Below are positions 45,929 through 52,222 of a stretch of DNA of 64,000 nucleotides, in pieces. The notes below the pieces were generated by a model that saw only the letters and a list, made by a program, of their open reading frames with translations, was not told where the DNA came from and searched no databases. Position 1 is the first letter of the stretch. Each line of letters opens with the position of its first letter. This DNA comes from Spinacia oleracea (taxonomy: Eukaryota; Streptophyta; Magnoliopsida; Caryophyllales; Amaranthaceae). The translations under genes were made by a program, and so were the position numbers. The stretch spans positions 145,235,861 to 145,299,860 of the forward strand of contig NC_079492.1 in NCBI RefSeq assembly GCF_020520425.1, written 5' to 3'.

Positions 45929-46074
45929 CCCTTCTTCCTTTCAAAGTACCTCAACTACCCTTTACTCACTTTCTCTCTCTTTCTTCGCTTTTTCTCTTTT
46001 ATATCAGTTGGAAGGTTGGACCCTTAGGTGCTCTTTTCTCTCTCCTCCCCTACTCTTACGCTCTTACACTTACG

Positions 46075-46210
46075 GAGTAAACTGTATTGAAGGTCCCTAA
46101 ACTTTGCCAAAAGGAGCAGTTAGGTCCCTCAAGTTTCAAAAGGAGCATTTAGGTCCCTCAAAATGGATGGAAAACGCTGCTTTTTGTTTTCCGTCACTAA
46201 CGGCCGTTAA
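46075..46210 (+). repeat. Left TIR of MULE
   Basis: Contains three spaced copies of the phrase AGGTCCCT, each after an AAAAGGAGCA-type block or terminal A-rich stretch. The last ~55 bp (GGAAAACGCTGCTTTTTGTT to CGTTAAAAT) is identical to the right TIR. Confidence 0.9.
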
Positions 46211-46571
46211 AATGAATATAATAATATTAAAAATTATTAAAATAAAAGGAGAATTAATATACACGTAGATTAATGATTGAAAACAGATGATTTTGATGAA
46301 AATAAGCCTTTTCCAATTACTTAGAGGTTTCAACTTACTTTTTCAATGTGTACACGTGGAAACCTTCCAACTTCTCTCGTTTTTTCTGGTTCCTTCCTAA
46401 TAATGTTTTGGCGGTAATTTTTTACTGTTCCCAACCCTATTTCCCCCCTTTTCACTTCCTATTTATATGGTCCCCCCCCCCCCCATTTTCATTCTCAGTT
46501 GTCTTTTTCCCATTTACTCACTTAAACACTTAAGAGAAGTTGAAGTTATTGCTCTGAGTTTTTCTGCAAAA

Positions 46572-47490
46572 ATGGGTTCTTGCGTATCAGGAAAGAGGAC
46601 TGCTGATAAGTGGGAATGTCGCACCCCCAAGAGAACAAGAATTTCCAGATGGGACGAAGGTATTTTCATTCAATTTGTCGGTTTTTTCAATAAATGTTTG
46701 CAGTTGAGCCATGATAAATTAGGGCTTTTTTGTTAAGTAACTTTTTCCCAAAATTGGTGCATGCATGTTCTTGAAAATGGTGTTTTATATGTTAATTTAA
46801 ACAATCGTGGGCTGATTTCGCATAATTTATCAATTGAAGTTGGAATTAGGGTTTCGTCCGTTTTTACTTTTCAATATTTAATTTGAATTGATGCTTGCAT
46901 GTTCTTGAAAATGGTGTTTAATATGTTAAATTATACAATTGTTGCCTAATTTGGAATTAATTTAAACTAGATTTTGTAGTAATTAGGGTTTCACTTACTG
47001 TTTTTGATTCACTTAAATAAAAAACAGAGTTTGATTAATTCGAATTGATGCTTGCATGTTCTTGAAAATGGTGTTTATTTAAACTATTGTTTAATTTGGA
47101 AGTATTTTAATCTAGATTCCGTATAATAATTAGGGTTTACTTACTGTTTTATTGACTTTGGCCGTTACTTTGACTTTAGGAGGCCTTGCTTTAAGGGAGG
47201 CACACCCCCTTTGTCATCATCAAGACCTCCTCATCACCCAGATCTTCACCAAGCTGGACTGGGACGGGCAGGCTGCTGTGCAGATGGTGTGCAAGCAGTG
47301 GCGTAGGTGGGCCAAGTTGCGGTACCGCCTCCCATACCACTACCCTCAAGGATGCTACCGCGCGTGGCTGCGGGAGTGGGTGATCATGGACATCATTGAC
47401 AATGATGGCCGTGACTTCCACGCCTGGATGGACAAGGACATGACCGTCTACTTTGACGGCTTCCCCCTCCTTTTCAAGGAGGAGGAGTAG
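46572..47490 (+). CDS. F-box-like protein encoded inside the MULE
   Basis: Two exons, 46572-46659 and 47180-47490, join in frame to 132 residues. The start MGSCVSGK is a classic N-myristoylation/palmitoylation signal. Exon 2 reads HHQDLLITQIFTKLDWDGQAAVQMVCKQWRRWAKL, which has the spacing of an F-box (DLL..IF..LDW......VCK.WR..A), the motif that binds SKP1 in SCF ubiquitin ligases. A short acidic-aromatic end follows (WMDKDMTVYFDGFPLLFKEEE). There is no typical substrate-binding repeat, as the protein is too short. Exon 2 is far richer in G+C than its surroundings, suggesting capture from elsewhere. Exon 1 can also be spliced in frame to the transposase exon at 47907. Expression not shown. 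Confidence 0.6.
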
Positions 47491-50400
47491 CTGGTGGTGG
47501 AGGCCATGCAGGGGTGGTGGTGGCGCTGGTGGTGGCCCCTCTTTTGTCAAGCTTATGATGATCCAGCTTGTTTATAGCTTTTTTTATTTTTAATTTTCAA
47601 GGACAATTACATTACTACTGTCATTGCAATTAGGTTTTTGTGAATGTGACAAATGTTGGTTTTTGGTATTTGTCACTGCTATGACAGTAGTTTATATCTA
47701 ACCGTAGGCTTCTCCCTCAATAGTGGATTGAGGTTTGAAATGTTAGGGTTGAAGCCTACCCTTTTGTAAATGAATTCTGATCATGTGGATGAATGAATGA
47801 ATGCAATTTAACCTTTTGTTATCTCTTGTGTTGTTATTCAAGATTTGGTTTGGTTTGATTTCTTAAAGTTTTGTTTTTTTAATTGATATTGTTTAACTTT
47901 GATCAGATGATGTTGATGATTTGACTTTGAACCCTTGCATATATGTGCATCATGGTGGTGAATGGGTTGTGCAAGGTGATATGGTTTATAGTGGGGGGAG
48001 GGTGGATGTCTTTGATTACATCCATGAGAATGCAGATGGCAAATATGTTAAGGAATTAGTCGATAGTTTAGGTTATAATGATATAGAGAAAGTACATTTC
48101 TGGGACCCTAGGAAAGAATTCAAGAATGGGGTTAGGTTTTTAGGTTTTGATAGTAGTACTTGTGACCCTTTCTTAGCTTTACTCTTTGAATACAAAAGCA
48201 TTCATATATACATTGAACATAAAATCAAACCCACCTACAACTTTAACCTAAACAGGAGTGCAGGAGGGGGGGGAGGGAGAGGTAGCTTCCTTGAGTTGTT
48301 GAATACTGATGTGGTTGACTTAAATTCTGATTATGTGGAACCACCTTTTACAGTACTCCCACCCAAACAAACTGAACCTCAACCTGAACCTCAAATTCAA
48401 CCTCAAAATGTGCCTCAACCTGAAATTGATTATGATTCAGAGGGTACAGATGAAGATGATGATGAGTTAGCCACTGCTAGGTCTAAGATATCTGATGATA
48501 TGAGAAGGGAAAAGGCTTATTTTGAGGAGTTAGTAATGCTGAAAAAACTAGCAGAAAGTAAAGTACAAGGTGGTCTGAATTTGGGGGATGACTTTGATGG
48601 ATACAGTGACTTAGACAGCCCTAGTGAGTCAGAAGATGAGGATGATGTTGGTTACTTAGTTGCACCACAACACCATAAGAGGGGGAGAGGGAAACAGAAG
48701 CAAAACAACACTGAAACTGAAGAGAGGGAAGCCACTTTTTATGTTGGGCAACAGTTTGAGAATCCAAAGACATTTAGGAAAGCAATCATAGATTATTCAA
48801 TTGATAAAGGAAGAAACATTCCATTTTCTAAAAATGATTCCACTAGGGTTTGTGCAGAGTGTGAGCACAAAGATAAAGGTTGTAAATGGAGAATTTGGGC
48901 TTCATGGGAGAGAGGAAGAAGGTCATTTACAGTGAAAACATTTGTCAGTGAGCACACTTGTGGTAGGACACCTATCATTAAGAAGATGACTTCACATTGG
49001 ATTGCAGAACACTACCAGAATCTGTTTAAGGTTAACCCTTACATGAGAGTGCAAGATATTCAGGAAACCATTTGGTTAGAAAAGGGTATAAGGGTGAGCA
49101 AAGACAAGGCTGCCAGGGCTAGGAGAAGGGGTCAAGCACTCATTGTTGGTGAATACAAAGAGCAGTATGCATTACTCCCAAGGTATGCAGCTGAGATACT
49201 AAGAAGCAATCCAGGGAACACAGTGAAGTTGAAGTTGGATGCAAATGTGTTTGACAGACTGTATTTGTGTTTTGAGGCACTTAGGAAAGGGTTCTTGGCA
49301 GGATGCAGACCTTTCATATCACTTGATGGATGTTTCTTAAAGGGACCATTTGGGGGTCAATTGTTAGTAGCAGTAGGGAGGGATGGAAACAATCAAATGT
49401 TCCCTTTGGCTTGGGCTGTTTGTGAGGTTGAGAGCACTGACACATGGAGTTGGTTTCTAGAACTTCTAGCTACTGATTTAGGCACTAGTGAAGGAGCAGG
49501 GTACACATTCATGTCTGACCAACAAAAGGGTTTACTTGCTGCTGTGTCAAATGTGTTTCCACAAGCTGAAAGTAGGGTGTGTGCAAGGCATGTGTACTGT
49601 AACTTTAGGGGAGTGTTTGGAGGTGGTTTAGAGTACAGAAAACAATTTTGGACTATTGCAAAAAGCAACACAGTAAATCACTTCAATGAAAACATTGAAG
49701 TAATGAGGGGTATTTCACATGAAGCTGCTGAAGACCTACTGAAAAGGAACTACAAGAAATGGTGTAGGGCATTCTACACTCCATTATCTTGTTGTGACAG
49801 TGTAGACAACAACATGAGTGAGGTGTTTAATGCATACATCTTGAGTGCAAGGCACAAGCCTATTATTACCATGTTGGAAGATATCAGAGAGGGTTTGATG
49901 GAAAGACTGCATAAGAAAAGAGATTTTATTGGGAAAAAGGAGATAATGTTGTGTCCTAGGATCCAAATTCAGTTAGAGAAACACAAAATTTGGGCTAGGG
50001 GTTGGAATGCATACTGGGATGGTGGGTTTTGCTATGGAGTAAGAGAAGGTGCAACACAGGTTAAGTATGTGGTGGATCTGAACCAACATACTTGCAGTTG
50101 CAATGCATGGCAGGTGAGTGGGATTCCATGCAAACATGCAATTGTTGCTATATGGAATAAAGTAGACCACCCAGAACAATATGTCAATGCATATTTCTGC
50201 AAACAGACCTACATGAAGGCATATGAATTTTTGTTAGAGCCTTTAAATGGTCCTCAAGAGTGGCCTACTTCTGATAGCATTGTTGTGGCTCCAAAGGTGA
50301 AAAAGGTCAATGGAAGACCTAAAACAAAGAGGAGATATGGTGTTGGAGAGGTAACTGCATCTGGTAAGCTGAAGAGAACAGGTTGTTCTATGAAATGCAG

Positions 50401-50890
50401 CTTATGTGGTGTGATAGGCCACAACAAAAGGGGTTGCAAGAATGCCCCTAAGCAACAACAACACAGCAACAATCATGCTACTGCAGAGCAGACCACACCA
50501 CAGCAACAACACCCAAGAACCAGTTCAGCTATACCAATGCACAATAGGGGTGTGGGTATTTATACCTACCCAAATGGGTATCAAAGAATAGCTACTGTAA
50601 GTCATTCAATATACTCAAATTCTTTCTTACATGTTACTTTACTGTACTGAAGCCAACTTGTTCCTAATTTGTTTTAATTAATGCAGCCTATATCACAACA
50701 CTTCCCCACACCACAGAGGCAAAGACCTCCTGCAGCTTTCTATTCTGATCATGGGGGTGAGCAAACCATCTACTCCTTCCCTGCACATGACTTCCCATTG
50801 TCACAGACTCAACCAAGTCAAGGACACACAATATCAAGCCAAGCATTGCAGGATCTTGCAATGGCTAGAAGATTAGAAAAAAGACCATGA
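46572..50890 (+). CDS. MULE transposase (MuDR family)
   Basis: Exons 46572-46659, 47907-50596 and 50687-50890 join in frame to about 993 residues. Domains: an N-terminal region (LYVHHGGEWV-like, IYVHHGGEWVVQGDMVYSGG); an acidic linker; a MuDR DNA-binding zinc domain (FYVGQQFENPKTFRKAIIDY...CAECEHKDKGCKWRIWASW...SEHTCGR, about 300-370); the MULE DDE core with FISLDGCFLKG (Asp about 503), FMSDQQKG (Asp about 567) and SVDNNMSEVFNAYIL (Glu about 667); a SWIM zinc finger (CSCNAWQVSGIPCKHAI, about 759-775); and a CCHC knuckle (CSLCGVIGHNKRGC, about 860-873). All three acidic residues are present and no stop interrupts the frame. The exon at 47907 has no in-frame ATG near its start, which supports splicing from 46659. 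Otherwise the first Met is in GDMVYSGG. Confidence 0.88.
46755..47130. repeat. Three spaced repeats in the MULE first intron
   Basis: The phrase GCATGTTCTTGAAAATGGTG and its flank (ATTGATGCTTGCATG before; TTTAATATGTTAA or TTTAAAC.ATTGT after) occurs at about 46762, 46898 and 47055, with ~130-155 bp spacing and an AATTAGGGTTT block between copies. Confidence 0.8.
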
Positions 50891-50971
50891 GGTTAGATTT
50901 TATTGAATTTAAAGTCTTCATTACATTTCATTAGTGCAGATCATTACATTTTACCTACCCACTTAACCCAC

Positions 50972-51401
50972 TTAACTTAAAACAAACCAGATAAAAAAAA
51001 ACAGAACCACTAGGATTACAACCCACACTTCACATTTCACACTAATAGGTCTTCTCATCTTGCTCATCACATAGTCTGCCTCCCTCTTCCTTGCATAATT
51101 GTTAGCTTCACTAAGTTTTGTCCTAAAACTATCAACTTCAGCAGCAAGGCTTTGTTTATCTTGCATTAACCCTAGTATGACAATTGTTTGCCAAGTTGTT
51201 GGTTCTTGTTCATCAATCCATCTAAAAAAAAATGCAACCCCTTCTGTTTGTTTCAACATCATAATCTAGACAAGCAATGAACCTCCTTCCAGGATTTTCT
51301 TTTGTCCATGCCTTTTGAATGGATACTGTGAATCCACAGTAGCACCTCTTAGGGTGTTCATTATCACCATTGTTGAACAAAGAGATAGCCCTATTCATCA
51401 T
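50972..51401 (-). pseudogene. GRF-type zinc-finger membrane protein in MULE (one frameshift)
   Basis: From an ATG at 51399-51401 the minus strand reads MMNRAISLFNNGDNEHPK, then RCYCGFTVSIQKAW, NPGRRFIACLDYD and GC at the Cys positions of a GRF zinc finger. The phrase FFFRWIDEQEP continues in the next frame. A run of nine T on this strand (51223-51232) shifts the frame by one at that point; eight would keep it open. After it come a likely coiled coil (DKQSLAAEVDSFRTKLSEAN) and a C-terminal membrane span (VWVVILVVLFFFIWFVL). The acceptor TTTGCAG just before the ATG suggests a 5' leader intron (about 51407-51501). It faces the transposase as mudrB faces mudrA. The shift may be real or a homopolymer sequencing error. 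Confidence 0.72.
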
Positions 51402-51779
51402 TCTGCAAATAAATTACGTTTTAATAATTATTTCCTAAATATGTTTAATTATTGTTAAAATAAGCTAACTTAAGATTTTAAAAAAAAATGGCAGAAAAAT
51501 ACCTTTTTGTTGAGAAGAGTCAGCTATGGTGGAGCAACAGAGAAAAAACACATAGCAGAAGATGGAGAAGAAAGAATTTTGTTTTTTAAGTGTTTTATTG
51601 TTGTTTTGTTGTGCATGGAATGTTAAATACTCTGTTTTTTGAGAGCCTCAACGGCTATATTTTTGTAAAAAGCTAACTGAAATGAATTCCCCTTTATTTA
51701 ATTATTGGTAAATGGTAAATGTAACTGTTTTTTTGTCGTTTAGTGCCTTTTATTTAGTTTCCTTTTAATTGAATTGAAT

Positions 51780-51917
51780 TTTAACGGCCGTTAGTGACGG
51801 AAAACAAAAAGCAGCGTTTTCCATCCAAACGCAGGGACCTAAATGCTCCTTTTGAAACTTGAGGGACCTAACTGCTCCTTTTGGAAAAGTTTAGGGACCT
51901 CCAGACCTATTTACTCT
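51780..51917 (-). repeat. Right TIR of MULE
   Basis: Inverted match to 46075-46210. The outer ~25 bp (AGTTTAGGGACCTCCAGACC) are more diverged than the inner part. Confidence 0.88.
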
Positions 51918-52222
51918 ACGCTTACGGTCCGTAAGTCCGTAACTATACATTTATACTTTATACGGAGTACCTATCCTTCCCTCCGGGTTTTTATAATTTC
52001 TCACTTGTATGGCACATGGTTTATGAATTATGAGAGCAATAATAGTGAAGAGCTTGAGGAGAGAGAATAAGAGCTAATGTCGAGAGTTAGTTCATTTTTA
52101 CAAGTTTTAAGAAAAGATTTTTATTTGAAGTTTGTGCTTAGGTGTCATAAGAAATAGATTAAGAGTCATCTAAATAAGAGTATTTCCTTTATTGTTGCTT
52201 TGAGTTCTGTGTAAAAGAAATA

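What the first reader, a model, noticed from the sequence alone, without database searches (positions are those of the whole stretch)
46572..47907. One first exon can feed either an F-box-like protein or the transposase
Exon 46572-46659 ends one base into a codon. Both downstream acceptors (47179/47180 and 47906/47907) restore an open frame: one gives a 132-residue F-box-like protein, the other a full transposase that otherwise lacks a nearby ATG. Both products would begin MGSCVSGK. A transposon making a membrane-anchored F-box-like protein and its transposase from one promoter would be an unusual regulatory design.
Basis: partly seen in the sequence, partly recalled or inferred. Interest (0 to 1): 0.85.

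Follow-up and report, generated by a model that had tools for sequence, protein, structure and literature searches.

The report
Plant jumping gene sharing one exon
A recently active plant jumping gene seems built so that one short first exon can be spliced either to its transposase or to a small F-box-like protein lying inside the transposase's first intron; the sequence pattern is well conserved, but no RNA evidence was available.

Summary
Window 46075-51916 is a Mutator-like element (MULE) with 139-bp inverted repeats and a 10-bp target-site duplication. Exon 46572-46659 ends one base into a codon and both acceptors restore the frame. Among 46 other copies from the same genome, the ATG (44 of 44), donor (44 of 45), first acceptor (46 of 46) and second acceptor (40 of 43) are kept. 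Exon-1 length changes are multiples of three in 18 of 20 changed copies, against 78 of 284 in intron windows. Exon 1, the F-box-like frame and the transposase start show codon-frame-specific selection; introns do not. Neither downstream frame has a usable ATG, and exon 1 is the only conserved candidate with a good donor. The order recurs at 82 of 92 long F-box hits.

Two interpretations need correcting. A membrane anchor is not a family trait: Gly2 is missing in three old, diverged copies, while a basic NLS-like motif plus RWDE is in 41 of 41 open exon-1 alleles. 'F-box' is weakly supported. Maize En/Spm is a precedent, so this is a new variant of a known kind. No transcripts could be examined.

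The parts
46065..46074 (.). left target-site duplication, TACACTTACG (right copy TACGCTTACG, 1 mismatch)
   Evidence: 15 of 20 other copies examined have a 10-11 bp duplication
46075..46213 (+). left terminal inverted repeat, 139 nt
   Evidence: 91% complementary to 51778-51916; matches of most copies begin within a few bases of here
46460..46469 (+). TATA-like box TATTTATATG; start site expected near 46495 (inferred)
   Evidence: same ten bases in 37 of 44 copies
46572..46659 (+). shared coding exon 1, 29 codons + 1 base, NLS-like basic motif and RWDE end
46660..46661 (+). donor GT (GAAG|GTATTT)
   Evidence: 44 of 45 copies
47178..47179 (+). acceptor AG of the F-box-like terminal exon
   Evidence: 46 of 46 copies
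47180..47490 (+). F-box-like coding exon, phase 1, stop TAG 47488-47490; GC 0.58
47905..47906 (+). acceptor AG of the transposase exon
   Evidence: 40 of 43 copies
47907..50596 (+). transposase exon 2 (DBD_Tnp_Mut, MULE, SWIM)
   Evidence: 3' end inferred from a GTAAGT at 50597
50687..50890 (+). probable transposase exon 3 (donor at 50597, AG at 50685-50686, phase 0)
   Evidence: read by eye; not tested in copies
50972..51401 (-). convergent accessory gene: GRF-zinc-finger-like, with a hydrophobic C-terminus; frame interrupted in this copy at the A-run 51224-51232
   Evidence: (Zn_ribbon_GRF E 0.015, below cut-off)
51778..51916 (-). right terminal inverted repeat
51917..51926 (.). right target-site duplication

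Best explanation
The element is a recently active MULE whose left-hand transcription unit makes two proteins from one promoter and one coding first exon. Exon 1 supplies the start codon and a short basic, NLS-like N-terminus. Splicing from 46659 to 47180 and polyadenylation within the large intron gives a 132-residue F-box-like protein as an alternative terminal exon. Splicing from 46659 to 47907, skipping that exon, gives the transposase (about 993 residues with the likely third exon). Shown from sequence: element boundaries, both in-phase junction signals, their conservation among copies, and frame-specific selection on all three coding segments. Inferred: that both transcripts are made, the promoter and poly(A) site, nuclear targeting, and that the small protein acts as an SCF adaptor.
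For: Donor and both acceptors kept in nearly all copies. Exon-1 length changes 18 of 20 multiples of 3, against 78 of 284 in introns. Pooled pN/pS is lowest in the true frame: exon 1 0.62 (other frames 1.45, 0.99; 7 sequences); F-box 0.45 (0.87, 1.80; 9 sequences); transposase start 0.47 (1.22, 0.87; 9 sequences); introns 0.80-1.15. Transposase sequence upstream of its first in-frame ATG resembles a 49%-identical cousin that reads MEPKPCIVVHHGG at its own ATG, so here translation should begin upstream of 47981. Of 42 candidate ATG-to-donor exons in the transposase's phase and 28 in the F-box phase (the 14 most conserved of each were printed), only exon 1 is both conserved and has a good donor score, 3.9 against 0.4 for the next conserved one (donor weights recalled). 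82 of 92 long F-box hits have exon 1 upstream and transposase downstream in the same orientation. No ATG lies in the presumed leader 46495-46571.
Against: No RNA data. No retrocopy carrying either spliced junction was found, which is uninformative. A weak alternative first exon, 46761-46779, is conserved in 8 of 8 diverged copies; candidates upstream of 46450 were not tested for conservation. Acceptor 2 is lost in 3 of 43 copies, two of them (L063, L067) among the nine diverged. Dinucleotide conservation alone is weak evidence: in the eight diverged copies 8 of 27 intron AG and 16 of 59 intron GT are also fully conserved. Selection estimates come from copies many of which are dead. In exon 1 dN (0.23) exceeds the intron rate (0.14) although dN/dS is 0.54, so it is not simply constrained.
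Confidence: 0.74

Rival explanations
1. The F-box exon is a poison exon: its inclusion stops translation early and lowers transposase output, and the small protein itself does nothing.
For: The exon ends in a stop kept in most copies and lies inside the transposase intron.
Against: Frame-specific purifying selection on the 102 codons (pN/pS 0.45 against 0.87 and 1.80 in other frames); the frame ends at 98-106 codons in 40 of 46 copies, four others having an early stop and two no stop in the stretch examined; no stop in 75 of 92 long hits.
Confidence: 0.12
2. Exon 1 serves only the transposase; the F-box-like gene is a nested gene with its own promoter and start.
For: The F-box exon is GC-rich (0.58 against 0.28-0.31 in the introns), as a captured piece would be.
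Against: No conserved in-frame ATG before its conserved part; acceptor 1 kept in 46 of 46 copies and in phase with exon 1; no other conserved first exon with a good donor.
Confidence: 0.07
3. Exon 1 serves only the F-box-like protein; the transposase starts at the internal ATG 47981 or from another exon.
For: The first in-frame ATG is only 74 nt inside the exon. A cousin starts its transposase at an ATG in the corresponding exon, after what looks by eye like a non-coding first exon.
Against: The region 5' of 47981 resembles the cousin's coding sequence, and the stretch 47909-48280 that holds it is under frame-specific selection; 3-nt indels right after acceptor 2 keep the phase.
Confidence: 0.07

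Closest known systems
Maize En/Spm (CACTA), tnpA and tnpD
   Same: One transcription unit, alternative splicing, a large ORF within intron 1, more than one protein (passages of PMC2613891 and PMC1636069).
   Different: Different superfamily and transposase. In Spm the transposase-like ORF lies in the intron and the DNA-binding protein is the spliced product; here the small protein lies in the intron. That the shared exon is coding here is shown for the frame only; how Spm's compares was not checked.
MuDR (mudrA, mudrB) and other MULEs with extra ORFs (Abermu)
   Same: MURA-type transposase, inverted repeats, additional ORFs including one in the opposite orientation (passages of PMC6446971 and PMC9168764).
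   Different: The extra genes described there are separate; no shared first exon or F-box appears in the passages read.
VANDAL / KIU MULEs of Arabidopsis (VANC anti-silencing; Ulp1 domain)
   Same: MULEs that carry accessory proteins acting on the host's silencing, some with a captured Ulp1 domain (passages of PMC13317346; starts of two VANDAL abstracts in the listing).
   Different: No F-box and no exon shared with the transposase in what I read.

Membership tests
Mutator-like element (MULE) | MURA-type transposase (DBD_Tnp_Mut, MULE, SWIM) | tested here: met
   E 3.1e-16, 1.8e-16, 3.6e-10, all above cut-off
Mutator-like element (MULE) | terminal inverted repeats | tested here: met
   139 nt, 91% complementary
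Mutator-like element (MULE) | target-site duplication of about 9-11 bp | tested here: met
   (ends allowed to shift by 2): 10 bp with 1 mismatch in the window; 10-11 bp in 15 of 20 other copies, 14 perfect; 5 had no right end in the fetched stretch
F-box protein | F-box motif above curated score | tested here: not met
   window protein E 0.041 (F-box-like) and 0.19 (F-box), below gathering score; of 12 members 6 and 5 match at E<=10, best E 0.0051 and 0.00029 (scores of the other members against the cut-off were not shown)
F-box protein | F-box fold | tested here: inconclusive
   model pLDDT 54; no PDB match at E<=0.001
F-box protein | binding to SKP1 | not testable with these tools
   needs a binding assay
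N-myristoylated protein | Met-Gly start kept in the family | tested here: not met
   Gly2 in 36 of 41 open alleles; absent from L060, L062, L063 and from single copies L024, L039
Spm-like single alternatively spliced unit | two mRNAs from one first exon | not testable with these tools
   genomic signals conserved; no RNA held

The most novel reading that the evidence does not exclude
The MULE encodes an F-box adaptor that redirects the host ubiquitin machinery against a silencing or repair factor, or against excess transposase, and by sharing promoter, start codon and a fast-changing NLS-bearing exon with the transposase it keeps counter-defence and transposition coupled: a splice choice sets the ratio of the two.
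Probability: 0.15. Interest if true: 0.82.

Novelty: new variant of a known kind. Interest (0 to 1): 0.52.

Why it matters
It would be a MULE that, like En/Spm, draws two proteins from one first exon, and in which the second protein may be an F-box adaptor. That gives a direct test of whether plant transposons use the ubiquitin system against silencing, a question raised by VANC and Ulp1-carrying MULEs. Because many recent copies exist, the splice choice should be measurable in existing RNA-seq.

Tried and rejected
Spliced retrocopies: junction patterns gave 1 hit against 3 in the reversed control and 3 hits, each with 3 mismatches, against 0 in the control; none lies near an exon-1, F-box or transposase hit in the lists (cut short), so I read them as chance. 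Host donor gene of the F-box-like exon: none recognised; the best hit that I took to lie outside the family had E 0.26. PDB profile search: best E 0.15, not credible. Structure model too poor to use. A fusion by splicing from within the F-box exon to the transposase: the only GT between 47184 and 47600 with donor score above 1 are at 47287 (phase 0) and 47307 (phase 2); phase 1 would be needed. Membrane anchor as a family trait: rejected. Literature: searches (no paper; no paper) showed no MULE with an F-box gene in the titles and abstract starts listed; I looked at passages of PMC6446971, PMC9168764 and PMC13317346 ('F-box' 0 times in each main text), and of PMC13359793 and PMC1175971, where the F-box passages shown concern host genes. 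The other listed papers were not opened. Only open-licence papers are held.

Full report
What is there. The window lies in an 894-Mb genome, a plant's by its content. Positions 46075-51916 are a Mutator-like element: 139-nt inverted repeats, 91% complementary, a 10-bp target-site duplication with one mismatch, and a transposase with DBD_Tnp_Mut, MULE and SWIM domains. Of 20 other copies fetched with long flanks, 15 have a 10-11 bp duplication (14 perfect, one with a mismatch) and five had no right end found within the fetched stretch. The 46572-48500 stretch gave 52 matching pieces, 91-100% identical (window included); several loci give two pieces, and the tool scored only 40 of 137 candidates. 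High identity and intact duplications mean that it moved recently.

Checking the finding. The coordinates and phases are right. I projected 46 other copies onto the window. The start codon is kept in 44 of 44 copies that cover it, the donor GT in 44 of 45 and acceptor 1 in 46 of 46. Acceptor 2 first appeared lost in many copies (17 of 43) because the aligner split a 3-base unit; the copies' own letters show AG in 40 of 43 (a stricter pattern counted 38). Exceptions are L017, L063 and L067. Length changes within exon 1 are multiples of three in 18 of 20 changed copies; in 17 overlapping intron windows of the same size 78 of 284 were. Those counts include shared ancestry. Of 41 copies that cover all three segments, 29 keep all three open and in phase.

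Coding selection. Among the window and eight diverged copies (L059-L065 and L067; L066 left out as a near-duplicate of L065), pooled pN/pS in the true frame is 0.62 for exon 1 (L064 and L067 do not cover it, so seven sequences), 0.45 for the F-box-like exon and 0.47 for the transposase start. The other two frames give 1.45 and 0.99, 0.87 and 1.80, 1.22 and 0.87. Two intron stretches give 0.80-1.15 in all frames. So all three segments are or were translated in the stated frames. Many copies are dead, so the ratios are probably upper bounds.

Why both products need exon 1. The first in-frame ATG of the transposase frame is at 47981, but residues before it (NPCIYVHHGGEW) resemble a 49%-identical cousin family that reads MEPKPCIVVHHGGCW at its own ATG. 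The cousin stretch (L068, 1201 bases) shows no F-box-like frame (no hit there), and its first exon looks non-coding by eye. The F-box-like frame has no usable ATG either. A scan of ATG-to-donor exons in the right phase found only exon 1 with both a good donor score and conservation; a 19-nt candidate at 46761-46779 is conserved but has a weak donor (the donor weights were recalled, and candidates upstream of 46450 were not tested for conservation). The order exon 1, F-box, transposase holds at 82 of 92 long F-box hits; 84 have exon 1, 88 have the transposase start, 2 have neither.

What the N-terminus is. Among 41 open exon-1 alleles (window included), Gly2 is in 36 and Cys4 in 38; the diverged copies L060, L062 and L063 read MVASSS or MDASSS, while the diverged L059 and L061 read MGSCSS. 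A K-[KR]-x-[KR] motif and a final RWDE are in 41 of 41. I read this as a nuclear-localisation signal (motif recalled, not tested).

What the small protein is. Pfam's F-box models match weakly, near the N-terminus of the exon: best E 0.00029 among 12 members, 0.04-0.06 for the window protein, below the curated cut-off. The structure model is poor (pLDDT 54) and gave no meaningful match. No host homologue was recognised in this genome. Membership in the F-box family is therefore not established; working like an adaptor is a reasonable lead.

How it most likely works. One promoter (TATA-like box at 46460) drives a transcript whose first exon joins either to the F-box-like terminal exon or, skipping it, to the transposase exon. 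The choice of acceptor and poly(A) use would set the ratio. Whether both mRNAs exist is untested, because no RNA was available.

Comparison with known systems. En/Spm of maize does the same kind of thing with a CACTA transposase (passages read). MULEs with accessory genes are well known, including oppositely oriented second genes and Ulp1-bearing or anti-silencing proteins. In the open-licence library my searches listed no MULE with an F-box-like protein; a shared coding first exon in a MULE was looked for only through search 23. I call it a new variant of a known kind.

Noticed in passing
window 46580-46640: The middle of exon 1 is more diverged between subfamilies (54-83% identity in 20-bp windows, mean of five diverged copies) than the adjoining intron (82-95% from 46660 to 46999); dN 0.23 and dS 0.42 against intron K 0.14. 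Alleles look mosaic among close copies, suggesting gene conversion or fast change of a shared N-terminus.
   Followed up: partly
window 50972-51401, minus strand: Convergent accessory gene resembling a GRF zinc finger with a hydrophobic C-terminus, placed like mudrB (placement recalled); in this copy the frame is interrupted in a homopolymer run whose length differs from that in the 5 other copies where the flanks matched.
   Followed up: partly
window 46752-47158: A repeat unit of about 157 bases in intron 1 varies in copy number among copies (+157, +314 bases).
   Followed up: no
L068 1-1201: A cousin MULE without a visible F-box exon seems to start its transposase at an ATG in the exon after a presumed 5'-UTR intron, so the coding exon 1 of the window family may be an innovation.
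   Followed up: partly
G000 C2:97553993-97555274: A copy with exon 1 and transposase start about 418 bases closer together and no F-box hit between them: a likely deletion, letters not read.
   Followed up: no
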